Below are positions 3,670 to 29,262 of a stretch of 44,176 nucleotides of DNA, piece by piece. The stretch lies in assembly GCF_001990265.1 (NCBI RefSeq), contig NZ_LYVN01000019.1:1-44176 (forward strand). Direction: 5' to 3'. Within the stretch, counting starts at the first letter, position 1. Every line of letters starts with the position of its first letter. The notes under the pieces were generated by a model. It made no database searches and was not told where the DNA came from. It saw nothing but the letters and a program-made list of their open reading frames with translations. The translations under genes and the position numbers were made by a program. This DNA comes from Sphingopyxis sp. KK2 (lineage in GTDB: Bacteria; Pseudomonadota; Alphaproteobacteria; Sphingomonadales; Sphingomonadaceae).

Positions 3670-5850
3670 ATGACCAAGTTGAACACCCGCATCGCGATCG
3701 GCCTCGCCGCCGGCGCCTCGATGCTCGCGATCGCCGCGCCCGCCATGGCGCAGGACGCGGCGGGCGACGACGAGATTCTCGTCACCGCGCAGCGCAACAA
3801 CCAGACCAAGGTCACCGCCGGCGGCGACGTCGGCGTCTTCGGCACCAAGGCGGCCGAGGATATCCCGTTCAACATCCGCAGCTATAACGAGGCGCTGATC
3901 CTCAACCAGCAGCCCGACTCGCTCGGCGAAGTGCTCGAGAACGACCCGACGATCCGCACCGCATTGGGCTTCGGCATCGCGGGCGAAGTCTTCGTCATCC
4001 GCGGGTTCGACCTGTCCTCGGACGACGTCGGCTACAACGGCCTCTACGGCATCACCCCGCGCCAGATCGTCGCGCCCGAACTCGTCTCGTCGGTGCAGGT
4101 GATCAACGGCGCCAGCGCCTTCCTCAACGGCGCCGCGCCCGGCGGCAGCGGCATCGGCGGCAGCGTCAACCTGCTCCCCAAAAAGGCCGACCGCGATGTC
4201 ATCCGCGGGACGCTGGGCTATACCTCGGCCTCGCATTTCTCGGGCGCGATCGACGTCGCGCGCCGCTTTGGCGCCGACCGGCAATGGGGCCTGCGCCTCA
4301 ACGCCTCGGCACGCCGCGGCGACATCGCGATCGACGACGAATTCCACTCGAGCTACGTCCTCGGCGCCACGCTCGATTATGACAGCGGCCCGCTGCGCGC
4401 CGCCTTGAGCCTCAACTACCAGCGGCTGAACCAGACATATTGGCGCGGCCAGGTCGGCATCGGCGCGGTGATTCCGCGCGTTCCGGACGCCGACACCAAT
4501 TATTCGCAGCCGTGGAGCCAGATCCTGACCAAGGATTATTTCGGCACCTTCAGCCTCGAATATGACCTGTCCGACGAAGCGATGCTTTATGCCAAGATCG
4601 GCGCGCGCGACGGGCGCGAGGACCAGACGACCGCCAGCATTACCGTCGCCAATCCGGTGACCGGCGCCGCGACGGGCGCGGGCTCCTATGTGCCGCGCGA
4701 AGACAATAATGAATCGGCGACGACGGGCATCCGCATCAAGCTGGCGGGCAGCGGCATCAGCAGTGAGATCAACGCCGGCGTGGCGGTGAACTGGCAGGTC
4801 AACCGCAACGCCTATGACTTCGACTTCGCGGGCTATGCGACCAATCTCTACGATCCGGTCGTCGCCCCGCGCCCGGCGCCGAACCAGTTCGTCGGCGGCG
4901 ATCTCGACGATGTCTTCCCGATCAGCCGCAACCGCCTGTCGAGCGTCTTCGTCTCGAACACGCTCGGTTTCTGGGACGACCGCATCCTCGTCACCGGCGG
5001 CCTGCGCCTGCAGGAAATCAAGACGACCTCGTACAGCTATGCCGATGGCGCGCGCACGGGCGGCTACAAGGAATCGGCGGCGACGCCGGTGTTCGGCATC
5101 GTCATCAAGCCGGTCGAGGGCCTGTCGCTCTACGGCAACCGGATCGAGGGGCTGATCGCGGGTTCGACCGCGCCGGTCGGCTACGACGATGACAACGACC
5201 CGCTCACCGCCCCGCTGCGCGTCGTCAACGCCGGCGCGGCGCTGTCCCCGGTCAAGTCGAAGCAATATGAGGTTGGCGGCAAGCTCAATTTCGGCCGATT
5301 CAACGCCGGCATCGCGCTGTTCCAGATCGACAAGCCCAACGCCTTCGTCGACCCGGTGACGATCGTCTATGGCAATTACGGCACCCAGCGGAACAAGGGC
5401 GCCGAGTTCACGCTCGACGGCGAGCCGGTCGACGGCCTGCGCATCATCTCGGGTCTCACCGTCCTCGACGCCAAGCTGCGCCGCACCGAAGGCGGGGTGA
5501 ACGAAGGCAATGACGCGGTCGGCGTGCCCGAGCTGCTCGCCAACGCCAATGTCGAATGGGACCTGCCCTTCCTGCCCGAACTGACCTTGGTCGGCCGCGT
5601 CGTCCATACCGGCAAGCAGGCGGCGAACGCGACCAACACGCTCGAACTCGATAGCTGGACGCGCTTCGACCTCGGCGCGCGTTATGTCGCGCTGGTCGGC
5701 GAGACCCCGCTCACCCTGCGCTTCAACGTCGATAATGTCGCCGACAAGCGTTACTGGGCGACCGCGTACAACGCCTTCAGCGCGTTCGGCACCCGGCTGC
5801 TCCAGGGCGGCCCGCGCACCTTCAAGGCCTCGGCGTCGATCGAGTTCTGA
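3670..5850 (+). CDS. TonB-dependent (siderophore-type) outer-membrane receptor
   Basis: The 726-residue protein begins with a signal peptide (basic MTKLNTR, hydrophobic core, AMAQ cleavage site about residue 28), followed by a TonB box (DEILVTAQ). The plug domain is next (about 55-190), with the EVFVIRGF segment typical of siderophore receptors. A 22-stranded barrel follows and ends in an aromatic terminal residue (SIEF), as outer-membrane porins do. A clear ribosome-binding site, GAAGGGGA, precedes ATG 3670. The PepSY and small membrane genes lie immediately upstream, so the three probably form one iron/siderophore uptake unit. The ligand (ferric siderophore type) cannot be read from sequence. 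Confidence 0.92.
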   Translation: MTKLNTRIAIGLAAGASMLAIAAPAMAQDAAGDDEILVTAQRNNQTKVTAGGDVGVFGTKAAEDIPFNIRSYNEALILNQQPDSLGEVLENDPTIRTALGFGIAGEVFVIRGFDLSSDDVGYNGLYGITPRQIVAPELVSSVQVINGASAFLNGAAPGGSGIGGSVNLLPKKADRDVIRGTLGYTSASHFSGAIDVARRFGADRQWGLRLNASARRGDIAIDDEFHSSYVLGATLDYDSGPLRAALSLNYQRLNQTYWRGQVGIGAVIPRVPDADTNYSQPWSQILTKDYFGTFSLEYDLSDEAMLYAKIGARDGREDQTTASITVANPVTGAATGAGSYVPREDNNESATTGIRIKLAGSGISSEINAGVAVNWQVNRNAYDFDFAGYATNLYDPVVAPRPAPNQFVGGDLDDVFPISRNRLSSVFVSNTLGFWDDRILVTGGLRLQEIKTTSYSYADGARTGGYKESAATPVFGIVIKPVEGLSLYGNRIEGLIAGSTAPVGYDDDNDPLTAPLRVVNAGAALSPVKSKQYEVGGKLNFGRFNAGIALFQIDKPNAFVDPVTIVYGNYGTQRNKGAEFTLDGEPVDGLRIISGLTVLDAKLRRTEGGVNEGNDAVGVPELLANANVEWDLPFLPELTLVGRVVHTGKQAANATNTLELDSWTRFDLGARYVALVGETPLTLRFNVDNVADKRYWATAYNAFSAFGTRLLQGGPRTFKASASIEF

Positions 5851-5867
5851 AGCGGTCAAGGAACCCC

Positions 5868-5912
5868 TCGCTGCCCCGATCATTTGGACTCCGAATCCAA
5901 AGGGGGCAGCGA
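5868..5912. other. long hairpin in the tonB-receptor/ku gap
   Basis: Outer stem TCGCTGCCCC (5868-5877) pairs with GGGGCAGCGA (5903-5912), and inner stem TTTGGA (5883-5888) pairs with TCCAAA (5896-5901) around the 7-base loop CTCCGAA. A 5-base bulge lies on the left. There is no T-run on either strand, so it is not a classical intrinsic terminator. It ends 11 bases before the Ku start codon, leaving the AAAGGA ribosome-binding site just outside. It could insulate ku from receptor read-through or shape the ku leader. Confidence 0.6.
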
Positions 5913-5923
5913 AAGGAAAAGCC

Positions 5924-6784
5924 GTGGCCGCACGCGCCTATTGGAAGGGACAGATCCGGCTCGCGCTCGTGTCGATCCCGGTCGAAATCTACCCTGCGAC
6001 CAAGTCGGGCGCCGCGATCAGCTTTCGCCAAATCCACGAACCGAGCGGCAAGCCGGTCAAATATGAGAAGGTCGTGCCGGGCATCGGTGCGATCGACACC
6101 GACGATATCGTCAAGGGCTATGAAACCTCGAAGGGCAATTATGTCCTGCTCGACGAGGAGGAGATTGAAGCGGTCAAGCTGGAGAGCAAGCGCACGCTCG
6201 AACTCGTCCAGTTCGTCGACGCGGGCGAGATCGACATCCTCTATTATGCCAAACCCTATTATGTCGTCCCCGCCGACGAGCTTGCCGAAGAAGCCTATAT
6301 CGTGCTGCGCGAGGCGCTGAAGAAATCGAAGAAGGTCGGCCTCGGCCAGCTGTCGGTGCGCGGGCAGGAACAGCTTGTAGGCCTGCGCCCCTGTGGCCGC
6401 GGGCTGGTGCTCGAAGTGCTCCGCTACGCCGACGAGGTGAACAAAGCGGCCAACTATTTCCGCGATGTCGGCAATGCCAAGCCCGATGCCGACCTGCTCG
6501 ACCTCGCCGCGACCTTGATCGACAAGAAGTCGGGCAAGTTCGACGCCGGCGATTATCACAATCATTATGTCGATGCGCTGAAGCGCGTGATCGCCAAGAA
6601 GGCGAAAGCCAAGGGCAAGCGCGTGCTCGAGGATGTCGAAGAGGTGGCGCCGGTGTCGCGCGGGTCGAACGTCATCGACCTGATGGCGGCGCTGAAGGCA
6701 TCGGTCGACGGCAAGAAGAAGGCGCCCGCCGCGGAAGCGAAAAAGCCGCCCGCGAAAAAAGCTCCGGCACGCAAGCGCGCCTGA
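5924..6784 (+). CDS. ku: Ku homodimer protein of bacterial NHEJ
   Basis: The 286-residue protein matches bacterial Ku throughout: ARAYWKGQIRLALVSIPVEIYP at the N-terminus, then the beta-barrel core with VKGYETSKGNYVLL and DILYYAKPYYVVP. It ends in a Lys/Ala/Pro-rich basic tail (GKKKAPAAEAKKPPAKK) as in many bacterial Ku proteins. It binds double-strand break ends and recruits LigD, which is encoded 470 bases downstream. GTG 5924 is chosen as start because AAAGGAAAA precedes it and the family N-terminus begins there; an in-frame ATG far upstream lies inside the receptor gene. The stop overlaps the ATG of the next gene. Length is normal for the family. Confidence 0.95.
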   Translation: MAARAYWKGQIRLALVSIPVEIYPATKSGAAISFRQIHEPSGKPVKYEKVVPGIGAIDTDDIVKGYETSKGNYVLLDEEEIEAVKLESKRTLELVQFVDAGEIDILYYAKPYYVVPADELAEEAYIVLREALKKSKKVGLGQLSVRGQEQLVGLRPCGRGLVLEVLRYADEVNKAANYFRDVGNAKPDADLLDLAATLIDKKSGKFDAGDYHNHYVDALKRVIAKKAKAKGKRVLEDVEEVAPVSRGSNVIDLMAALKASVDGKKKAPAAEAKKPPAKKAPARKRA

Positions 6785-20153: not shown

Positions 20154-21113
20154 ATGCTCTCCCGCATCTTTCCCGATCGCTTCGTTCCGCTCCTTCTCGC
20201 GACGATATTGCTTGCCAGCCTCCTCCCCGTGCGGGGCGCGATGGTGCCCGTCGCGCAGGGGATTTCGACCGCGGCGATCGTCTTTCTTTTCTTTCTCAAC
20301 GGGGTGCGGCTGCCGCGGGGCGAAGTGCTGCACGGCATCCGCAACTGGAAGTTGCAGGGCGGCGCGCTCGCTTTCTGTTTCGGGTTCATGGCCTTGTTCG
20401 GGCTCGGCGCGCAGGCGGCGACCGCGGCCTTCCTGCCCACGACGCTGGCGCTGGGTTTCCTGTTCCTCGGCATCCTGCCCTCGACGGTCCAGTCGGCGAC
20501 CGCGGCGAGTGGACTCGCGGGCGGCAATGTCGCGGCGAGCGTCGTCGCGGCGGCGCTGCTCAACCTGATCGGGGTCGCGGCCTCGCCCCTGCTCTTCGCC
20601 GCGCTCGCGGGGAGCGCGGGCGAGATCCATGGCGAGGCGGTGCTGCGCATCGTCGCGATATTGCTGCTGCCCTTTATCGCCGGACAGCTGGTCCAGCGCT
20701 GGCTGCGCCCGTGGGTGCTTGCGCACAAGGGGCTGGCGACGGTGATGGACCGTAGCGCGATCGCGATCGCGGTCTATGTCGCCTTTTCGGCCGCGGTCGT
20801 CGCGGGGATCTGGCAATGGCTCGACGCGCGCGAGATCGCCATCGTCCTTGCCGTCGTCGGCGTGCTGCTGGCGCTCGCATTCGGCGGGGCGTGGGGGTTC
20901 GGCGCGCTGCTGAAGCTGGCGCGCGCCGACCGGATCACCCTGCTCTTTTCGGGCGCACAGAAAAGCATCGCGGTCGGCGCGCCGCTCGCCGCGACGCTGT
21001 TTCCGCCCGCGGTCGCGGGCATGGTGCTGGTGCCGATCCTTGTCTATCATATGGCGCAGCTGATCCTGTCGGCCTGGCTCGCGCCGGTGCTGAACGGGGC
21101 AGATCGAGTGTGA
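20154..21113 (+). CDS. bile acid:sodium symporter family protein
   Basis: The 319-residue protein is almost entirely hydrophobic with about ten helices and matches the SBF-like family (PF13593 type): FLNGVRLPRGEVL in an early loop, LGILPSTVQSATAASGLAGGN in the crossing-helix region, and FSGAQKSIAVGAPLAATLF near the end. Family members carry organic anions or steroid-like compounds with Na+. The substrate here is unknown. It is followed by the telA gene after 63 bases, with a weak promoter candidate between, so it may or may not belong to the flotillin operon. No strong ribosome-binding site precedes ATG 20154. Confidence 0.85.
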   Translation: MLSRIFPDRFVPLLLATILLASLLPVRGAMVPVAQGISTAAIVFLFFLNGVRLPRGEVLHGIRNWKLQGGALAFCFGFMALFGLGAQAATAAFLPTTLALGFLFLGILPSTVQSATAASGLAGGNVAASVVAAALLNLIGVAASPLLFAALAGSAGEIHGEAVLRIVAILLLPFIAGQLVQRWLRPWVLAHKGLATVMDRSAIAIAVYVAFSAAVVAGIWQWLDAREIAIVLAVVGVLLALAFGGAWGFGALLKLARADRITLLFSGAQKSIAVGAPLAATLFPPAVAGMVLVPILVYHMAQLILSAWLAPVLNGADRV

Positions 21114-21116
21114 TGC

Positions 21117-21147
21117 TTGAATAACACAGTGCCGCATGCCATATAGG
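21117..21147 (+). promoter_or_regulatory. possible promoter of the telA-flotillin-TIR operon
   Basis: TTGAAT (21117-21122) is followed by CATATAGG (21140-21147), giving a 17-base spacer to CATATA or 19 to TATAGG. A hairpin GTGCCG/CGGCAC (21129-21156) overlaps the spacer and the -10. The telA start follows at 21177 with GGAAGGAAG as ribosome-binding site. Matches are partial, so this is a weak call. Confidence 0.35.
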
Positions 21148-21176
21148 TATCGGCACGGGGCCCGGAAGGAAGACGA

Positions 21177-22388
21177 ATGAGCGAAGTGACCGCAACCGCG
21201 ACGGCGACCGACGAACTGAAGCTGACCCCGCCCGATCCCGTACCCGTGGTGTCGCCCGAAAAGGCCGCGGGCCTCGTCTCGCTGTCGACCGAGCAGAAAT
21301 CGAAGCTCGAGGAACGCGTCGACGGTTTCATCGACGACCTCGTCGCGCAGGACGAGAACAGCCCCGAATTCGGCCAGCGCATCGACCAGATCACCAATAT
21401 GGGCCGCAAGGAAATGCTCGAGGCGGCGAACCAGTCGAACCGCTTCCTCGACCGGCCGGTGAAGGCGATGGACCGCGACAGCGACATCGGCATGAACCTG
21501 ATCGAGCTGCGCAACACCGTCGAGCGGCTCGACCCGTCGGCGAACGGGAAACTGCTGTCGAAGCGCGGTTTCCTCGACAAGATTTTCGGGAGCAGCGTCA
21601 CCAATTATTTCGCGCAATATCGCAGCGCGCAGTCGCATATCAGCGGCGTGCTCACCGCCTTGTCGAACGGCAAGGACGAGTTGCTGATGGACAATGCGGC
21701 GATCGACGTCGAGCGCCGCAAGCTGTGGGAGGCGATGGGCAAGCTCGAGCAGATGATCCATATCGCGCAGACGCTCGACCGGCGGCTCGAGGACAAGGCG
21801 ATCGAACTCGACGGCACCAATCCCGCCAAGGCGAAGGTGCTGCGCGAGAATGCGCTCTTCTATGCGCGGCAGCGGACGCAGGACCTGCTCACGCAGATGG
21901 CGGTGACGGTGCAGGGCTATCTCGCGCTCGACCTCGTCAAGAAGAACAATATCGAGCTGGTGAAGGGGGTCGACCGCGCCTCGACCACCACCGTCGGCGC
22001 GCTCAAGACCGCGATCACCGTCGCGCAGGCGATGACCAACCAGAAGCTGGTGCTCGAACAGATCACCGCGCTCAACACGACGACCGCGAACATCATCGAC
22101 GGCACGTCGAAGATGCTCAAGGACAATACCGCGCGCATCCACGAACAGGCCGCGTCGAGCACGATCCCGATGGAGACGCTGAGCCGCGCGTTCCAGAATA
22201 TCTATGACACGATGGACGCGATCGACACCTTCAAGCTGAAGGCGCTCGACAGCATGAAGACCACGGTCCAGTCGCTCGAGGGCGAGGTCGCGAAGTCGAA
22301 GGGCTATATCGCGCGCGCCGAGGGTGCGAGCCAGGCGCAGGCGAGCGTCGGCGGCGCCGACAGCCCGCTCGCCTCGCTCGAAGCATGA
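21177..22388 (+). CDS. TelA-family toxic anion resistance-like protein
   Basis: The 403-residue soluble, helix-rich protein matches the TelA family: FIDDLVAQDENSPEFGQRIDQI near the N-terminus, SNRFLDRPVKAMD, then a long coiled-coil-like region with MAVTVQGYLALDLVKKNNIELVKGV and TVAQAMTNQKLVLEQI. TelA proteins were named for tellurite resistance and occur in general stress and envelope-related gene sets; their mechanism is not settled. The stop overlaps the ATG of an XpaC-like membrane protein, the usual TelA partner. This is the first gene of the five-gene flotillin/TIR locus. Confidence 0.9.
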   Translation: MSEVTATATATDELKLTPPDPVPVVSPEKAAGLVSLSTEQKSKLEERVDGFIDDLVAQDENSPEFGQRIDQITNMGRKEMLEAANQSNRFLDRPVKAMDRDSDIGMNLIELRNTVERLDPSANGKLLSKRGFLDKIFGSSVTNYFAQYRSAQSHISGVLTALSNGKDELLMDNAAIDVERRKLWEAMGKLEQMIHIAQTLDRRLEDKAIELDGTNPAKAKVLRENALFYARQRTQDLLTQMAVTVQGYLALDLVKKNNIELVKGVDRASTTTVGALKTAITVAQAMTNQKLVLEQITALNTTTANIIDGTSKMLKDNTARIHEQAASSTIPMETLSRAFQNIYDTMDAIDTFKLKALDSMKTTVQSLEGEVAKSKGYIARAEGASQAQASVGGADSPLASLEA

Positions 22389-23110
22389 CGACGATGACGA
22401 TGAGCGAGGTCGACAAGATCAGCGCGCTGGGCAATGCCGCGATCGAACGATCGCGCGAACGGCGGCGCCCGATCGGGACTAAGAGCGTCGCGCTGCGCCG
22501 CCAGCATCTTTACAGGAAGCTCGGCCGGATGCTGATCGCGGGCGGCGTGGTGCTGCTCGGCGCCGCGGTGTTCGGGCTGCTGATCCAGCCGCTCGGCTTC
22601 GTCGGGCTGCTCGCGCTGCTCGTGCTGCTGGTCGGGGTCGCGGTGCTGTTCGGGCGCTCGCCCTTCCCCGAGCCGCAGCAGGCCGATTTGCCCAAGACCG
22701 ACCTCAAGCAGCTCGCGGGGCGGACCGAAATCTGGCTCGAGGCGCAGCGCCCCGCGCTGCCCGCGCCGGCGCGCCAGCTGGTCGACGGGATCGGGGTACA
22801 GCTCGACCTGCTCGCGCCGCAGCTCCAGACGCTCGACGCGTCGAGCCCCGCCGCGGCGAATATCCGCAAGCTCGTCGGCGAGGATCTGCCCGAGCTGGTC
22901 GCCGGCTATCAGCGCATCCCCGCGGGGCTGCGCGGCGAGGCGCATGCCGGGCGCACCCCCGACGAGACGCTCGTCGGCGGGCTGAAAACGCTCGAGAGCG
23001 AGATCGGCCATGCCGCACGCAGCCTCGCGGCGGGCGAGCTCGACAAGCTGGCGACGCGCGAGCGTTACCTGCAGCTCAAATATCAGGGGCTGGACGGCGT
23101 CGACAGCTGA
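22385..23110 (+). CDS. XpaC-like membrane protein coupled to telA
   Basis: The 241-residue protein has a basic N-terminal region (RSRERRRPIGTKSVALRR), two adjacent transmembrane helices (about 48-66 and 71-91), and a cytoplasmic helical domain of about 140 residues ending RERYLQLKYQGLDGVDS. The architecture, and the C-terminal pattern of Leu-rich helices with LESEIGHAARSLAAGELDKL, resemble XpaC-family proteins often paired with TelA. Sequence identity by eye is modest. The ATG overlaps the telA stop, so the two proteins are probably made in fixed ratio and may interact at the membrane. Confidence 0.72.
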   Translation: MTTMTMSEVDKISALGNAAIERSRERRRPIGTKSVALRRQHLYRKLGRMLIAGGVVLLGAAVFGLLIQPLGFVGLLALLVLLVGVAVLFGRSPFPEPQQADLPKTDLKQLAGRTEIWLEAQRPALPAPARQLVDGIGVQLDLLAPQLQTLDASSPAAANIRKLVGEDLPELVAGYQRIPAGLRGEAHAGRTPDETLVGGLKTLESEIGHAARSLAAGELDKLATRERYLQLKYQGLDGVDS

Positions 23111-23125
23111 CGCCAGAACAGCGCG

Positions 23126-23749
23126 ATGTTCGACCAGCTGCTTGCTTCCGAAAATGTGATCTTCAGCGCCGCGCTACTGCTGATGCTGCTGATCGGCGCG
23201 GTGCAGGCGCTCGGCATCGTCGGCGATGTCGATGGCGACGTGGGCGGGCATGACGGCGACGCCGGCGCGGCCGAGGCGCTGCTCGCCTGGGCCGGGATCG
23301 GGCGCGTGCCGCTGCTGATGTGGCTCGTCGTCTTCCTCGCGCTGTTCGGCACGCTGGGGCTGGGATTGCAGCAATTGGTGACGGCGCTGACCGGCGGCCC
23401 GGCGACGAGCCTGCTCGCCGCGCCGGTCGCCGCGGTCGCCGCCTTGCCCCCGACCGGCGCCGCGTCGCGGGTGATCGCGCGGGTGTTCCCGAGCATCGAG
23501 ACCACCGCGATCGACCGCGACGAACTGATCGGCACGCGCGCGACGATCACGATCGGCACCGCGACGCCGGGCAATCCCGCGCCCGCCAAATGCATCGACC
23601 GCCACGGCCATCCGCACCAGATCATGGTCGAGCCCGACAGCGCCGACCAGACGTTCCAGACCGGCGAGACGATCCTGCTGGTCAAGCGCGAAGGCGAAAT
23701 ATTCAAAGGCTTTTCAAACGGCGATTTCTATTTACCCCGCCTAGACTGA
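23126..23749 (+). CDS. YqiJ-like membrane protein with C-terminal OB-fold domain
   Basis: The 207-residue protein has hydrophobic helices near residues 10-33, 68-92 and about 95-112. A beta-rich C-terminal domain follows (about 130-207: ELIGTRATITIGTATPG, GHPHQIMVEPDS, GETILLVKREGEIF). This is the layout of YqiJ, an NfeD-relative usually encoded beside a flotillin (YqiK). E. coli YqiJ has about the same length. The Asp/Gly-rich loop VGDVDGDVGGHDGDAG between helices might bind cations. The flotillin gene starts 68 bases downstream, as expected for a YqiJ-YqiK pair. Confidence 0.85.
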   Translation: MFDQLLASENVIFSAALLLMLLIGAVQALGIVGDVDGDVGGHDGDAGAAEALLAWAGIGRVPLLMWLVVFLALFGTLGLGLQQLVTALTGGPATSLLAAPVAAVAALPPTGAASRVIARVFPSIETTAIDRDELIGTRATITIGTATPGNPAPAKCIDRHGHPHQIMVEPDSADQTFQTGETILLVKREGEIFKGFSNGDFYLPRLD

Positions 23750-23817
23750 CCCTAATATCGATGCGGGCGGCTTTCCAAAACCGGAAGCCGAATCGCAGAA
23801 ACAGGGCAGTTTAATCC

Positions 23818-25530
23818 ATGATTGAAATCGCGATTTACGCCGGAGTCGGCTTGGCCGTCCTCCTGATACTCGGTCTGATCATCACGCGGCTGTATCGCCG
23901 CGCGACGAAAGAAATCGCTTTTGTCCGCACCGGCTTTCGCGGCGAGCGCGTGATCATGAACGGCGGCGCGCTGGTGCTGCCGGTGCTCCACGAAACCATG
24001 CCGGTGAACATGAACACGGTGCGGCTGGCGGTCGAACGCAAGAATGTCGACGCGCTGATCACGCTCGACCGCCTGCGCATCGACGTGAAGGCCGAATTTT
24101 ACGTGCGTGTCCGGCCCGACGCGGGCGCGATCGGGATGGCGGCGCAGACCCTGGGCCTGCGCACGATGAACCCCGAGGCGCTGAAGGATCTGGTCGAGGG
24201 CAAGTTCGTCGACGCGCTGCGGTCGGTCGCGGCGGGCATGACGATGAACCAGCTGCACGAACAGCGCGCCGATTTCGTCCAGAAGGTGCAGCAGGTCAGC
24301 TCGAACGATTTGTCGATGAACGGGCTAGAGCTCGAATCGGTGTCGCTGACCGGGCTCGACCAGACCTCGATCGAGCATTTCAACGCCAACAACGCCTTCG
24401 ACGCCGAGGGCCTGACCAAGCTGACCGAGCAGATCGAGCTGCGCAAGAAGGCGCGCAACGACATCGAACAGGACACCCGCGTCCAGATCGAGACCAAGAA
24501 TCTGGAGGCCGACCAGCGCAGTTTCCAGATTTCGCGCGACAATGAATTCGCGCGGCTGGAGCAGGAACGCGAGGTCGAGATGCGCCGCGCCGCCCAGGCG
24601 GCCGAAATCGCGCGCGAACAGGCACAGCGCAACCAGGAGGCCGAGGGCGCGCGCATCCAGGCCAAGCAGCTGGTCGACGCCAAGCAGATCGAGGCCGATC
24701 GTGCGATCGAGGAAGCGCGCATCGCGCAGGAACAGGCGATCGAACTGGCGCGGCAGGAACAGCAGATCCTGATCCAGAACAAGAGCCGCGAGGAAAGCCA
24801 GGCGCGCGGCGAGGCCGACGAGGCGCGCGCCGTCGCGGTCGCCGCCGAGGAACAGGTGGCAACCGCACGCGAGACCGAGATCGCCGAGCGATCGAAGCGC
24901 ATCGAACTGATCGAAGCGGCCAAGGAAGCCGAGCGGCAGGCGATTTCGGTCAAGGTGCAGGCCGAGGCGGAGAAAGAGGCGGCATCGAACCGCGCCGCCG
25001 CGCTGCGCTTCGAAGCCGAGGGCGAGGCCGACGCCGAGAAACTGCGCGCCGAGGCCGCACGCGTCCGATTCGAGGTCGAGGCGGCGGGCCAGCGCGCGAT
25101 CAACGAAGCGGCGAATATCCTGTCGTCGAACCAGATTTCGCTGCAGACCAAGATGGCGCTGCTGAAGGTGCTGCCCGAGGTGGTGCGCGAGGCGGCGAAG
25201 CCGATGGAGGCGATCGATTCGATCAAGATCGTTCAGGTCGACGGCATCACGCAGAATGGTGGCGGCGCGGCGGGCGGCGGCGGATCGGTCGACGGCGGCA
25301 ACCTCGCCAGCAATGCGGTCGCGGCGGCGCTGTCGTATCGCGCGCAGGCGCCGGTGATCGACGGGCTGATGAAGGAGCTGGGCTTCGACGGCGGGTCGCT
25401 CGACGCGCTGATCGGCGGCGCGACTGCCGAAGCGGCGCCTGCCACTGCGGCTGCCCCGGCGCCGCGGAGCAACCGCAAGCCGCGCCCGGCCGCGACCGAG
25501 GCGGTCGAAACCGACGACGACGAAAGCTGA
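23818..25530 (+). CDS. flotillin/YqiK-family membrane scaffold protein
   Basis: The 570-residue protein has one N-terminal membrane segment (about 3-22), an SPFH/PHB domain (about 30-200) with GGALVLPVLHETMPVNMNT and VKAEFYVRVRPD, a long Glu/Ala/Gln/Arg-rich coiled coil (about 205-420), and a C-terminal oligomerisation region rich in Gly and Ala. Flotillins form large membrane cages that organise lipid microdomains. The upstream YqiJ-like gene is the usual partner. The TIR-WD40 gene follows after 57 bases, an unusual neighbour. The family assignment is firm. Confidence 0.94.
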   Translation: MIEIAIYAGVGLAVLLILGLIITRLYRRATKEIAFVRTGFRGERVIMNGGALVLPVLHETMPVNMNTVRLAVERKNVDALITLDRLRIDVKAEFYVRVRPDAGAIGMAAQTLGLRTMNPEALKDLVEGKFVDALRSVAAGMTMNQLHEQRADFVQKVQQVSSNDLSMNGLELESVSLTGLDQTSIEHFNANNAFDAEGLTKLTEQIELRKKARNDIEQDTRVQIETKNLEADQRSFQISRDNEFARLEQEREVEMRRAAQAAEIAREQAQRNQEAEGARIQAKQLVDAKQIEADRAIEEARIAQEQAIELARQEQQILIQNKSREESQARGEADEARAVAVAAEEQVATARETEIAERSKRIELIEAAKEAERQAISVKVQAEAEKEAASNRAAALRFEAEGEADAEKLRAEAARVRFEVEAAGQRAINEAANILSSNQISLQTKMALLKVLPEVVREAAKPMEAIDSIKIVQVDGITQNGGGAAGGGGSVDGGNLASNAVAAALSYRAQAPVIDGLMKELGFDGGSLDALIGGATAEAAPATAAAPAPRSNRKPRPAATEAVETDDDES

Positions 25531-25549
25531 TCTTTCCGGGCTTTCCAAT

Positions 25550-25582
25550 CCCCGCTGCCTGACTTAGCGTCGCGCAGCGGGG
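25550..25582 (+). promoter_or_regulatory. hairpin covering the ribosome-binding site of the TIR gene
   Basis: CCCCGCTGC (25550-25558) pairs perfectly with GCAGCGGGG (25574-25582) over a 15-base loop. The only purine-rich ribosome-binding site before ATG 25588 is the G-run at 25579-25583, nearly all of it in the right arm, 4 bases from the start codon. The hairpin would therefore hold translation of the TIR protein low unless opened. There is no T-run, so it is not an intrinsic terminator. Confidence 0.6.
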
Positions 25583-25587
25583 GCAAC

Positions 25588-27759
25588 ATGACGACAGCGA
25601 TCAGCGAGATTGACGAAGAGGCGCGCTACCGCGCCTTCTTCAGCTACGCCCGCGCCGACGGCAAGCTCGCCGCCAAGCTTCATCGCTTCCTCGACAGTTA
25701 CAAGGTGCCCAAGGCGCTGCAGGGCATGGCGGGCAAGCGCGGGCCGGTGCCCGCGACGCTGCATCCGATCTTTCACGACCGCGAGGATCTGGCGGGCGGC
25801 GGCGAGCTCGGCGACCGGCTGCGCGCCGCGCTCGAATCGAGCGAGGCGCTGATCGTACTATGTACCCCCAATTCGGCGCGGAGCCATTGGGTCGACGAGG
25901 AAGTGCGGCTGTTCCGCGCGAAGAACGGCAATGACGCGATCTTTCCCGTCATCGGCGACGGCGACCCCGACAGCGACGACCCCGAGGTCCAGTGCATGCC
26001 GCCGGCGCTCCGCGAGACGTCGGTGCTCGCCGCCGACCTGCGCGATATCCGCAAGGAGACGGGGCACATCATCGGCGACGGCGCGGCGGGCGGACGGCAG
26101 AAATTGCTCGCCGGGCTGCTCGGGCTCGACCTCGACCAGTTGCGCCGGCGCGAGGATGCGCGGCGGCGGCGGCAGATGATCGCGATGGCGGGGGCGCTGA
26201 TATTGTTCGTCGCGCTGGCCGGCGTCGCGACCGCGCTGGGTTTCGCGGCCCGAAGCAGCGCGCGCGAGGCCGAACGGCAGCGCGTCATCGCCGAGGCGCA
26301 AGCGGTCCGCGCGCAAAAGGGCGAGGCGCTGGCGCGGCAACGCGCCGAGGCCGAGGCACTCGCGCGGTCGCGCGAGAGCGCCGCGCGCCAGCTCGCCGAC
26401 GAGCAGCGCAAGCTGGCCGAGCAGCAACGTGCGCTCGCGCTCGCCAATGCCGCCGAGGCGCAGCGCCAGGCGGGGATCGCGCGCAGCAACGCGACGCGCG
26501 CCGAGGCGCAATATGCGCGCGCGCAGGAGGCGCTCGCCGACAGCTTCGCGCAGCGCGGGCTGGCCGCCGCCGATGCGGGACGAAACGACCTCGCGCTGCG
26601 CTACGCGCTCGCGGGGGCGCAGATTTCGCCCGCAAGCACGGGACGCCAGCGCGTGCTGCTGGCGCGGCTGACCAGCGCCCCGACGCAGCGCACGATGCTG
26701 ACCATCGACACCAATTCGATCAGCTTCCTCGCGATGAGTCCCGACGGGACGCGCGTGATGACATCGGGGCTCGACAAGGTTGCGCGGCTGTTCGACGCGG
26801 CGAGCGGCGAGCGCATCGCGCTGACCGGCGGCGCGATGAAGGGGCAGACCGGATCGCGGCCGCCCAACACGCGCGGGATGAACGCCGACCCGACCATCGG
26901 CGGCACCAAGCTGACCAACAATTGGTTCAACGCCGATTCAACGCGCTTCCTGATGACACTGGCCGATGGCAGTTTCGAGCTGCGCAATGCGCAGACGGGG
27001 TCGGCGGTGACCAAGATCGGCGGGCATCGCGGCGCGGTGCTGTCGGGCAGCTTCAACCCCGACGGCGACCGGGTGCTGACGGGCTCGCTCGACGACACGG
27101 CGCGCATCTGGTCCCTGGCGACGCGCAAGGAGATCGAGGCGGCGCGGATCGCGGTGCCGAGGCTGCGATCGGCGGCGTGGGCGGCCGACGGCGAGGGCGT
27201 CGTGACCATGTCGCTCGACCAGGGACTGCAATTATGGCGCGGCGGCCGCGTGGTCGCGACGCTGCCGCCGCGCGACGCGAACAAGGGCGCGCTGGCGATC
27301 ACCGCCGACGGGACACAGGCGATCGAGATCGACGAGGCCGGGGTGATCCGCCTGTCGCGGATGGGCGATGGCGAGACCGAGGTGAAGCTGGAGACGCGCG
27401 ACGTCGCGCGCGGCGCCTTTGCGATCAGCGCCGATTCGCGCTTCGTCGCGGTCGGGCGCACCGACGGCCATGTCGTGGTGTGGGACATATCGTCGCGCCA
27501 GCCGGTCGCCGATTTCGCGGCACATGGCGCGGCGATCTCGGCGCTGAGCCTGAGCCCCGACAATCGCCAGCTCGCGACCGCGACCAATGGCGGCGAGGTG
27601 CACCTGTGGGATCTGCTGCCGCTGTTCGCGCCGTTCGACGTGCTGGCGGACGCCGCGTGCCGGAAGCTGGGGTCCGACGCGCGGGCGTTCAGCAGCGACG
27701 AACGCGCGGGCGATCCGCTGATCGGGGCGGTTTGGGGGGCGAAGGCGGTTTGCCGATAG
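25588..27759 (+). CDS. TIR domain-transmembrane-coiled coil-WD40 protein
   Basis: The 723-residue protein opens with a TIR domain (about 12-150): RAFFSYARADGKLAAKL, FHDREDLAGGGEL, EALIVLCTPNSARSHWVDEE. Glu104/Glu105 in SHWVDEEVRLF is at the position of the catalytic Glu of NADase TIRs. A basic stretch (RRREDARRRRQ) and one membrane helix (about 197-218) follow. Next are a Gln/Arg/Ala/Glu coiled coil (about 220-330) and a WD40-type propeller (about 360-700; ISFLAMSPDGTRVMTSG, VLTGSLDDTARIW, RFVAVGRTDGHVVVW, RQLATATNGGEVHLWD). Positive-inside logic puts TIR in the cytoplasm and the propeller in the periplasm. Such proteins are candidate sensors that trigger NAD+ cleavage or signalling; activity here is inferred. 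It ends the flotillin locus. Confidence 0.9.
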   Translation: MTTAISEIDEEARYRAFFSYARADGKLAAKLHRFLDSYKVPKALQGMAGKRGPVPATLHPIFHDREDLAGGGELGDRLRAALESSEALIVLCTPNSARSHWVDEEVRLFRAKNGNDAIFPVIGDGDPDSDDPEVQCMPPALRETSVLAADLRDIRKETGHIIGDGAAGGRQKLLAGLLGLDLDQLRRREDARRRRQMIAMAGALILFVALAGVATALGFAARSSAREAERQRVIAEAQAVRAQKGEALARQRAEAEALARSRESAARQLADEQRKLAEQQRALALANAAEAQRQAGIARSNATRAEAQYARAQEALADSFAQRGLAAADAGRNDLALRYALAGAQISPASTGRQRVLLARLTSAPTQRTMLTIDTNSISFLAMSPDGTRVMTSGLDKVARLFDAASGERIALTGGAMKGQTGSRPPNTRGMNADPTIGGTKLTNNWFNADSTRFLMTLADGSFELRNAQTGSAVTKIGGHRGAVLSGSFNPDGDRVLTGSLDDTARIWSLATRKEIEAARIAVPRLRSAAWAADGEGVVTMSLDQGLQLWRGGRVVATLPPRDANKGALAITADGTQAIEIDEAGVIRLSRMGDGETEVKLETRDVARGAFAISADSRFVAVGRTDGHVVVWDISSRQPVADFAAHGAAISALSLSPDNRQLATATNGGEVHLWDLLPLFAPFDVLADAACRKLGSDARAFSSDERAGDPLIGAVWGAKAVCR

Positions 27760-27790
27760 CAGCCGCCCCCCGGAACGGGGAGGCTGCTAT
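27756..27790. terminator. bidirectional hairpin between the TIR gene and the ECF cassette
   Basis: ATAGCAGCC (27756-27764) pairs with GGCTGCTAT (27782-27790), with inner CCCC/GGGG pairs around a short loop. The element contains the end of both convergent genes' stop codons. It has no clear T-run on either side, but its position and stem length suggest it separates the two transcription units. Confidence 0.55.
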
Positions 27791-28110
27791 GCGCGCAGCC
27801 TCTGCGTGCCGCCGAACCAGAGCAGCAGGATCAGCAGCAGCGGCGGCGCGACACCCCATTGGGCGGGCCCGGCGAGCGGAGCGAGCATGGGGGTGCCCGA
27901 GAGCAGCCAGAGGCCGGCGAGCAGCGCCATCACGGCCAACGTCTCAAAGGCGAAGCTGGTCCAGAAGCGCGATCGGGCGCGGGCATAGGCCGCCTGCGCA
28001 TCGATCGCACGGTCGACCTGCACCGCAAAGGTGCGGTCGCCGGCACGCGCCGGCGGCGCAAGCATCGAAGCCAGCATGGCGTCCATCGCGCTGTCGTCCG
28101 AGCCGGTCAT
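27787..28110 (-). CDS. small two-helix membrane protein coupled to the ECF sigma factor
   Basis: The 107-residue protein has an N-terminal cytoplasmic part (MTGSDDSAMDAMLASML) and two hydrophobic helices (about 50-73 and 83-99), ending in basic residues. Its ATG overlaps the sigma-factor stop (ATGA), the usual place for an anti-sigma factor. No zinc-binding HxxxCxxC motif of the ZAS class is visible. It may be a membrane anti-sigma of another class or an accessory protein. The frame and coupling are seen, the role is inferred from position. Confidence 0.7.
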   Translation of the reverse strand: MTGSDDSAMDAMLASMLAPPARAGDRTFAVQVDRAIDAQAAYARARSRFWTSFAFETLAVMALLAGLWLLSGTPMLAPLAGPAQWGVAPPLLLILLLWFGGTQRLRA

Positions 28111-28640
28111 GCCGCGCCTCCTTCGCCGATCAGTTTCTGCGCCTTTGCCCGGCCGCGCAAGACCAGAGATTTGAGCGTGCCGAGCGGCACGCCCATGATC
28201 TCGGCGGCCTCGCCATGCGACCAGCCATGGCCGAAACAGAGGGTGAGCGCGGCGCGTTCCTGTGCCGACAGGCCCGCGAGCAACCGGTCGGCGTCGATCG
28301 CGGCGTCGGTCGCACCATGCGGGTTGCTGCTGGTAACGCCATCCTCGTCCTGCGCAGCGAGAGATTCGCGGCGCTTCGCGGTGCGGCGCTGGTCGAGGAA
28401 GAGGCGCCAGCCGATCCCCATGACCCACGCTGCATAGCTGCCCTGCCCCCGATAATCGCCGGCGCGGCGCCAGGCGCGGACGAACGCCTCCTGCGCGAGG
28501 TCGTCGCCGTCGGCGTCGCTGCCCGCAGCGCGCGACAGGAAGGCGCGCAATCGCCCCTCGTGCCGCAGCACGAGGAGCTGGAAAGCGGCGCGGTCCCCCC
28601 CGGCGACGCGCTGGTTGAGGGCAAAGTCCTCATCGGCCAC
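28107..28640 (-). CDS. ECF-family RNA polymerase sigma factor
   Basis: The 177-residue protein has sigma region 2 (about 15-85; DADGDDLAQEAFVRAWRRAGDYRGQGSYAAW split over the 2.1-2.4 helices) and sigma region 4 (about 115-170; LSAQERAALTLCFGHGWSHG and PLGTLKSLVLRGRAKAQ). Region 1 and 3 are absent, as in ECF factors. It directs RNA polymerase to an unknown regulon. The gene begins 4 bases after an upstream membrane-protein gene and overlaps a small membrane protein gene, so three genes form one unit. The sandwich of the sigma factor between two membrane proteins is unusual. Confidence 0.92.
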   Translation of the reverse strand: MADEDFALNQRVAGGDRAAFQLLVLRHEGRLRAFLSRAAGSDADGDDLAQEAFVRAWRRAGDYRGQGSYAAWVMGIGWRLFLDQRRTAKRRESLAAQDEDGVTSSNPHGATDAAIDADRLLAGLSAQERAALTLCFGHGWSHGEAAEIMGVPLGTLKSLVLRGRAKAQKLIGEGGAA

Positions 28641-28644
28641 GCTT

Positions 28645-29262
28645 TCATCCGAGGTCCGCGGCGCGTTCCTCGGCGGCCGCGGCGCGCGCCATGCGGCGGC
28701 GGACCAGCAGTGCGATGCCGACGAAGGCGGGGAAGAGCGCGGCGCCGGCGGCCTCGCGAATCATCTGCTCCTCGCCCTGGATCAGCCCGAAGCCGGCCAT
28801 GGCGAGACCGATCGCGAGCAGGACGAGGCCGTTGCGATCCTCGTTGCTGGTGCCGGTGCCGGTGCCGCCGAACTTCCACGTGCCGAGATGCTCATAGGGT
28901 TTGTTGAGCTTTTCGATCAGCGGGTTGACCGACTCCGACTTGGCGTCGAGCGCGCGACGGATCGAGCGGTGCATCATCCACGCATGGAGCAGCCGTGACA
29001 GCAGGAAGAAGCCGACCACGAACAGCGCGACCATCGTGATATTTTCCATCAGGCGGAAAAAGCTGTCGCTGACCGCGACGAATTCGGTGGTCGGCGGCGG
29101 CGGCGGCATGAAGCGCGCGATTTCGCCTGGGTCGATCTGCGCGGCGACGTCGGACGCGCTGATCACCTGCGCGGGGATCGTTTGCGCGGGCACCGCGACC
29201 GCGGCGGCAGGCGCCGTCGCCGTCGGGATCGCCGCGGTGGCATTGGCCAAAATCTGGAACAT
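28645..29262 (-). CDS. membrane protein of unknown function, first gene of the ECF cassette
   Basis: The 205-residue protein has an N-terminal hydrophobic/Ala-Pro-rich segment, a Pro run (FMPPPPPTTEF), and one helix at about 76-98 (ENITMVALFVVGFFLLSRLL). A basic cytoplasmic stretch and a C-terminal helix pair (about 150-190) ending RRRMARAAAAEERAADLG follow. It may belong to the DUF6249-type group, but that is from memory only. ATG 29262 is taken over ATG 29265 because GGAGGG then lies 5-6 bases upstream. It is followed within 4 bases by the sigma factor gene. Confidence 0.7.
   Translation of the reverse strand: MFQILANATAAIPTATAPAAAVAVPAQTIPAQVISASDVAAQIDPGEIARFMPPPPPTTEFVAVSDSFFRLMENITMVALFVVGFFLLSRLLHAWMMHRSIRRALDAKSESVNPLIEKLNKPYEHLGTWKFGGTGTGTSNEDRNGLVLLAIGLAMAGFGLIQGEEQMIREAAGAALFPAFVGIALLVRRRMARAAAAEERAADLG

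What the first reader, a model, noticed from the sequence alone, without database searches (positions are those of the whole stretch)
21117..27790. Five-gene TelA-XpaC-YqiJ-flotillin-TIR/WD40 locus: candidate membrane-linked immune or stress system
Five same-strand genes are packed with overlaps or short gaps: telA-like and XpaC-like (ATGA overlap), YqiJ-like (15 bases on), flotillin (68 bases on) and a TIR-TM-coiled coil-WD40 protein (57 bases on). TelA/XpaC and YqiJ/flotillin are each known pairs; joining both to a TIR protein is not a combination I know. Flotillin could scaffold membrane microdomains, TelA/XpaC could respond to envelope damage, and TIR could be the effector (NAD+ cleavage). 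The gene order and domains are seen; a joint function is inference.
Basis: partly seen in the sequence, partly recalled or inferred. Interest (0 to 1): 0.72.

Follow-up and report, generated by a model that had tools for sequence, protein, structure and literature searches.

The report
Rare TIR receptor gene beside flotillin
Five neighbouring bacterial genes are real but do not look like one conserved machine: a widespread core pair was joined by a flotillin pair and, in one small group of Sphingopyxis relatives, by a gene for a membrane protein that probably senses something outside the inner membrane and may cut NAD inside the cell.

Summary
Pfam confirms TelA, YqiJ, flotillin, TIR and WD40; "XpaC" is not confirmed. 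A five-gene system is not supported. In Sphingopyxis, telA-xpaC is the core (55 of 55 sites viewed, window included); yqiJ-flotillin is added in 14 of 55, the TIR gene in 3, and in 3 of 80 genus genomes. One of those three lacks yqiJ-flotillin; a fourth genome keeps only a scar of the TIR gene. All four lie in one six-genome clade. None of 40 more distant TIR relatives viewed sits near the other four genes. The TIR protein belongs to a broad group of TIR-TM-sensor proteins with an invariant Glu, E105 (43 of 43). Charge bias (41 of 43) and an even cysteine count after the TM (39 of 43; before it 22 of 43) suggest a cytosolic TIR and a periplasmic sensor, as in Toll receptors. Best reading: an autonomous envelope-sensing TIR receptor that entered an envelope-stress operon. 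Joint function with flotillin is possible but unproven.

The parts
20154..21113 (+). SBF-like transporter; conserved first gene of the unit in the genus
   Evidence: PF13593 E 4.3e-80; upstream of telA in 54 of 55 genus sites viewed, window included
21177..22388 (+). telA
   Evidence: PF05816 E 2.5e-90; 59 of 60 genus and 105 of 119 family genomes
22385..23110 (+). small helical membrane protein called XpaC-like; follows telA at every genus site viewed
   Evidence: 55 of 55 sites; no PF10112 match; single-sequence model almost wholly helical (mean pLDDT 73.7)
23126..23749 (+). yqiJ (NfeD-like partner of flotillin)
   Evidence: YqiJ_N and YqiJ_OB; upstream of flotillin in 30 of 30 family loci examined, window included (30 of the 40 flotillin genomes)
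23818..25530 (+). flotillin (Band_7 + Flot)
   Evidence: 17 of 60 genus, 40 of 119 family genomes
25549..25583 (+). hairpin in the 5' leader of the TIR gene; its 3' arm holds the G-run before the ATG
   Evidence: -25.4 kcal/mol, z -4.9 for 43 nt, but z -1.2 for the G130 leader and z -1.3 for 90 nt of the window; 2 of 9 pairs change on both sides among 4 sequences, 31 of 500 shuffles reach that
25588..27759 (+). TIR-TM-coiled coil-WD40 protein, 723 aa
   Evidence: TIR_2, WD40; model; propeller matches WD40 chains
25624..26052 (+). TIR domain (about residues 13-155)
   Evidence: and alignments
25900..25902 (+). codon of E105, predicted catalytic Glu
   Evidence: invariant in 43 of 43; aligned with the Glu of plant TIRs
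26194..26250 (+). single TM helix (about residues 203-221)
   Evidence: hydrophobic window 2.36 and charge +3 before, +1 after; helix in model
26284..26574 (+). long coiled coil (residues 233-329)
   Evidence: one long helix in the model; coiled coil by eye
26683..27615 (+). WD40 propeller (residues 366-676), fast-evolving sensor candidate
   Evidence: dN/dS 0.41 against 0.09 for the TIR domain
27658..27753 (+). span between the codons of C691 and C722, the only two cysteines after the TM
   Evidence: both kept in G130; G172 has two cysteines with the same 31-residue spacing at its C-terminus

Best explanation
A layered locus, not one machine. Shown: SBF-telA-xpaC is the core in the genus; yqiJ-flotillin is an accessory pair that lies beside telA-xpaC in five genera; the TIR gene is found in one small Sphingopyxis clade, behind a conserved leader. 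Inferred: it entered that site once, at the base of the clade, and was later lost in part of it. Inferred mechanism: the TIR protein is a single-pass receptor of the inner membrane. Its TIR domain, with predicted catalytic Glu105, faces the cytosol; its coiled coil and WD40 propeller face the periplasm, closed by a C-terminal disulfide (C691-C722). A periplasmic ligand or envelope damage would bring receptors together, the TIR domains would assemble and cleave NAD+, stopping growth or signalling. Flotillin/YqiJ and TelA may supply co-expression and perhaps a membrane platform under envelope stress, but the receptor is unlikely to depend on flotillin, since one relative keeps it without that pair.
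For: telA-xpaC at 55 of 55 sites, yqiJ-flotillin at 14, TIR at 3. TIR gene in 3 of 80 genus genomes. G130 has TIR without yqiJ-flotillin; its TIR leader follows xpaC directly. G144 keeps the leader fused to the last 50 bp of the TIR gene (local score 75, highest of 200 shuffles 33). All four lie in a six-genome clade, support 0.999. Purifying selection against G130: dN/dS 0.09 TIR, 0.41 propeller. E105 in 43 of 43. Charge before TM larger than after in 41 of 43; cysteines after the TM even in 39 of 43 (31 of the 35 that have any), before the TM 22 of 43; 5 of 6 even in further relatives, two of those five with none. 40 of 40 distant relatives viewed stand apart from the four other genes.
Against: All three close orthologues and the scar follow telA-xpaC, so linkage to that pair is complete in the little that exists. 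Gaps are short and no terminator was seen, so one transcript is likely. dS of the TIR gene against G130 (0.58) exceeds that of its neighbours (0.34-0.39), so exchange rather than plain descent is possible. Five of 43 TM candidates fall below a hydrophobicity of 1.6. Cysteine parity is counted on related proteins: by clusters it is 5 of 5 (p 0.03), 8 of 10 (p 0.055) or 22 of 26 (p 0.0003) for three cut-offs. NADase activity, topology and phage protection are untested.
Confidence: 0.55

Rival explanations
1. One reading: flotillin scaffolds a membrane domain, TelA and its partner sense envelope damage, and TIR is the dedicated effector; all five act together.
For: Tight same-strand packing; all close TIR orthologues follow telA-xpaC; telA-xpaC and yqiJ-flotillin join more often than chance (7 of 40, 0.25 expected).
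Against: TIR absent from 12 of 14 sites with flotillin and 52 of 55 with telA-xpaC; G130 has TIR and no flotillin match; 40 of 40 distant relatives viewed apart.
Confidence: 0.13
2. The site is simply a permissive slot behind xpaC; TIR is neutral or unrelated cargo that is read with its neighbours by chance.
For: The same slot holds yqiJ-flotillin, a GGDEF gene with a weak MASE1 match (G172, G176; only the G176 copy was scanned), an unidentified gene (G130, and a gap of the same size in G161), or nothing.
Against: TIR gene is under purifying selection; several slot genes are membrane or signalling genes.
Confidence: 0.2
3. The TIR protein is anchored by its TM but the propeller is cytosolic and senses an internal signal.
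For: WD40 propellers are mostly cytosolic (recalled); the stretch after the TM is still positive (+1).
Against: Charge bias 41 of 43 and cysteine parity 39 of 43 against 22 of 43 before the TM.
Confidence: 0.25
4. The TIR domain only assembles partners and does not cleave NAD+.
For: Some TIR domains are adaptors (recalled).
Against: E105 invariant in 43 of 43 and aligned with the Glu of plant TIRs.
Confidence: 0.15

Closest known systems
YqiJ/YuaF (NfeD) - flotillin (SPFH2) operons, PMC2636767 (passages read)
   Same: yqiJ directly before flotillin, same domains
   Different: The main text has no occurrence of 'TelA' or 'TIR'; here both pairs are joined
Flotillin + YqiJ + AAA+-coiled coil-beta-propeller operons of PMC11237479 (passages read)
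   Same: A coiled coil and beta-propeller protein is encoded with flotillin and YqiJ
   Different: Here the third protein carries TIR and one TM; residues 1-365 match TIR families only. No PspA among the 25 of 33 Pfam families shown for 30 other window ORFs
XpaC-TelA (lmo1966-lmo1967) pair of Listeria, PMC12791056 (passages read)
   Same: A small gene beside a TelA gene, linked there to envelope-active antimicrobials
   Different: The second protein here does not match PF10112
Thoeris ThsB TIR proteins
   Same: ThsB_TIR profile matches 43 of 43 members at 0.001, the window protein above Pfam's cut-off (24.3 against 21.2 bits)
   Different: Window protein reaches only E 0.001 in PADLOC; no PADLOC model, ThsA included, in 30 other window ORFs at 1e-5
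TIR-TM-TPR proteins of the same family of bacteria
   Same: TIR and TM regions about 40% identical
   Different: TPR in place of WD40; other neighbours

Membership tests
TIR NADases | TIR fold profile | tested here: met
   TIR_2 E 3.7e-11, above curated cut-off
TIR NADases | Catalytic Glu (position recalled) | tested here: met
   E105 in 43 of 43; alignment with plant TIRs
TIR NADases | NAD+ cleavage | not testable with these tools
   needs a biochemical assay
Thoeris | ThsB-type TIR | tested here: inconclusive
   ThsB_TIR above Pfam's cut-off for residues 1-365, but PADLOC ThsB only E 0.001
Thoeris | Adjacent ThsA-type effector | tested here: not met
   0 PADLOC families in 30 other window ORFs at 1e-5
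YqiJ-flotillin operon | NfeD/YqiJ gene directly before an SPFH2 flotillin | tested here: met
TelA family | PF05816 profile | tested here: met
   E 2.5e-90
XpaC family | PF10112 profile | tested here: not met
   no match in the window protein or 7 homologues at E<=10, none in the genome at E<=10
PSP-type flotillin/AAA-propeller operon | AAA+ ATPase in the coiled coil-propeller protein | tested here: not met
   residues 1-365 match three TIR families only at 0.01; the rest matches propellers in the 25 of 39 families shown
Five-gene TIR system | Conserved five-gene order | tested here: not met
   2 of 55 genus sites hold all five, one of them (G172) with a GGDEF gene between

The most novel reading that the evidence does not exclude
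A bacterial class of Toll-like receptors: single-pass proteins with a cytosolic NAD-cleaving TIR domain and a periplasmic, disulfide-closed TPR or WD40 sensor. In one Sphingopyxis clade such a receptor was wired into a telA-xpaC-yqiJ-flotillin envelope-stress operon, so that membrane damage or phage attack at the envelope triggers NAD+ loss from a flotillin platform.
Probability: 0.25. Interest if true: 0.75.

Novelty: new variant of a known kind. Interest (0 to 1): 0.42.

Why it matters
If the sensor really lies in the periplasm, these proteins would be bacterial TIR receptors with the topology of Toll receptors, which could be tested at once with reporter fusions. The recurrent join of telA-xpaC to yqiJ-flotillin is a separate link, above chance, between two poorly understood envelope modules. 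The finding also shows how a tight operon in one genome can mislead: across relatives it splits into a core, an accessory pair and a rare addition.

Tried and rejected
Defence island: PADLOC gave nothing at 1e-5 in 30 other window ORFs of my choice (not every window ORF was scanned) and only weak ThsB matches in the TIR protein. Mobile-element carriage: 44 plasmid records matched, none over 80% of the query; the 20 listed match from residue 335 or later, that is by the propeller. XpaC identity: tested by Pfam at E<=10 and by PF10112 in the whole genome, no match. Remnant of the TIR gene in G176, G119 and G161: no score above the shuffles. Wider survey: flotillin matched 23 of 190 class genomes but telA only 3 of 190, all in the same family, so the join of the two outside the family could not be tested. 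The A5 profile in 385 class genomes gave 7 genomes with a match, own included; six stretches of 4-8 kb fetched around these matches hold none of the other four genes (L197 is cut by the contig end inside the TIR gene); the seventh genome, G014, is in the family set. The genome-contig scan used two short peptide patterns only and found 3 loci, so its sensitivity is limited. Hairpin: strong in short stretches of three of four leaders, weak in G130 and in 90 nt, weak covariation; kept as a side note.
Full report
Observation. The window holds five same-strand ORFs with exactly the overlaps and gaps reported. Pfam confirms TelA, YqiJ, flotillin and a protein with TIR and WD40 repeats. The second gene has no Pfam match at 0.01 and does not match the XpaC family PF10112 at E<=10, in the protein, seven homologues or the whole genome. 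A single-sequence model of it is almost wholly helical. An SBF-like transporter gene lies 63 nt upstream of telA.

Where it is. 

Comparison within the genus. telA is in 59 of 60 genomes searched, flotillin in 17 of 60, the TIR gene in 3 of 80. I viewed the telA site in 54 genomes plus the window (recounts the 54 loci); four genomes with telA (G133, G148, G151, G159) were not fetched and G136 has no telA match. At these 55 sites telA is followed by the xpaC-like gene in 55, preceded by SBF in 54, followed by yqiJ-flotillin in 14 and by the TIR gene in 3. Three further flotillin genomes (G131, G152, G169) carry yqiJ-flotillin away from telA. In 21 sites the xpaC-like gene is followed at 14-181 nt by the same opposite-strand gene that lies after the TIR gene in the window; one of these 21 is the scar of G144. 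Two sites (G172, G176) hold an ORF between xpaC and yqiJ, a GGDEF protein in the copy scanned (G176); G130 holds an unidentified 387-codon gene behind the TIR gene, and G161 a gap of the same size. At the other sites without flotillin the downstream side was not analysed.

History of the TIR gene. In G130 the leader of the TIR gene follows xpaC directly and no flotillin match is present. In G144 the leader is fused to the last 50 bp of the TIR gene, a deletion scar (score 75, highest of 200 shuffles 33). Window, G130, G172 and G144 fall in one clade of six genomes with support 0.999 (FastTree on SBF, telA and xpaC, genes of the locus itself; 54 of the 55 sites, G135 left out). One arrival and later losses is the simplest account. 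Against G130, dN/dS is 0.09 for the TIR domain, 0.17 for the coiled coil part, 0.41 for the propeller and 0.20 for telA: the gene is kept, and the propeller changes fastest. dS is higher in the TIR gene (0.58) than in its neighbours (0.34-0.39), so exchange between strains is possible.

Comparison beyond the genus. In 119 family genomes flotillin is in 40, telA in 105 and a TIR relative in 35. From the coordinates, telA and flotillin lie within 10 kb in 7 of the 40 (G000, G042, G095, G087, G023, G108, G046; five genera); about 0.25 is expected by chance, genomes taken as independent. In a flotillin tree of 30 of these 40 and 15 genus loci the linked ones fall in several places. The join is thus recurrent, or old and often lost. 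Of the 40 family TIR places other than the window I fetched the surroundings of 39, and one more from the genus search: 0 of 40 stretches hold telA, xpaC, yqiJ or flotillin at 1e-6. Some stretches are cut by contig ends. In G101 the TIR relative is 14 kb from telA on one contig, beyond the stretch fetched.

The protein. TIR relatives share about 40% identity over the TIR and TM parts and differ after it: TPR_2 matches 21 of 43, WD40 3 of 43. E105 is in 43 of 43 and aligns with the Glu of plant TIR domains (weak but significant matches). A model (mean pLDDT 67) shows TIR, TM helix, a long helix of 97 residues and a propeller; the propeller matches WD40 chains such as 5yzv and WDR5. Net charge is higher before the TM than after in 41 of 43; 38 of 43 TM candidates reach a hydrophobicity of 1.6. 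The number of cysteines after the TM is even in 39 of 43 (28 have exactly two, 8 none), before the TM in 22 of 43; of the 35 with any, 31 are even. By clusters the signal is 5 of 5, 8 of 10 or 22 of 26 (p 0.03, 0.055, 0.0003). In six further relatives it is even in 5, two of them without cysteine, and charge agrees in 6. C691 and C722 are kept in G130, and G172 has a pair of the same spacing. I read this as a cytosolic TIR and a periplasmic sensor; it is an inference.

Literature. PMC11237479 (passages) describes operons of flotillin, YqiJ and an AAA+-coiled coil-propeller protein; PMC2636767 (passages) describes YqiJ-flotillin operons; PMC12791056 (passages) describes the Listeria XpaC-TelA pair. 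PMC7075850, PMC7159879 and PMC10907252 (passages) deal with TIR domains and conflict systems; the passages do not show a TIR-TM-WD40 protein, and PMC10907252 predicts periplasmic sensor domains for other proteins. A search for TelA, XpaC and flotillin together gave one unrelated paper. Searches for bacterial TIR with WD40, TPR or periplasmic terms listed 2, 12 and 5 papers, of which I read passages of three; by title and abstract start the others do not treat this architecture. The library is open-access only, so absence from print is not shown.

Searches were run for it: one search shows that residues 1-365 match TIR families only, with ThsB_TIR above its cut-off.

Verdict. A rare, conserved TIR receptor was added behind an envelope-stress operon. 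Its likely topology is the most interesting part.

Noticed in passing
L109:11607-13340 (-), and 17 more TIR neighbourhoods among L101-L141: 18 of 41 TIR-relative neighbourhoods hold a related gene whose one scanned member matches guanylate cyclase and TPR-S; 14 of 41 hold a related gene whose one scanned member is Crp-like. A possible recurrent TIR-cyclase-Crp set. Neighbour genes were picked by a base-composition rule.
   Followed up: partly
L104:11171-12949 (-); also near the TIR genes of L108, L110, L112, L120: 5 of 41 TIR neighbourhoods hold a related protein; two members scanned match DUF4231 weakly, below its cut-off, and the start resembles SLOG proteins by eye (label recalled).
   Followed up: no
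L087:11489-12919 (-) and L068 about 4850-6570: A GGDEF protein with weak MASE1 match sits between xpaC and yqiJ in G176, with a similar ORF in G172, so the slot takes different signalling genes.
   Followed up: partly
L067:11006-12166 (-): Unidentified 387-aa gene between the TIR gene and the opposite-strand block in G130; no Pfam match at 0.01; G161 has a gap of the same size there.
   Followed up: no
L101:8099-10933 (+): G130 has a second, diverged TIR/WD40 gene about 11 kb downstream of the first.
   Followed up: partly
window 27787-29154 (-): Sigma-factor-like gene with flanking small genes on the opposite strand marks the right border of the variable slot in many genus genomes.
   Followed up: partly
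G130:C55:139077, G161:C1:2065206, G148:C13:32267, G143:C7:203474, G149:C14:23464: Five of 60 genus genomes carry a second TelA at 34-37% identity, two of them with a stop inside the match.
   Followed up: no
window 25549-25583: Hairpin before the TIR start codon whose 3' arm overlaps the G-rich stretch upstream of the ATG; could limit translation. Support is weak.
   Followed up: partly
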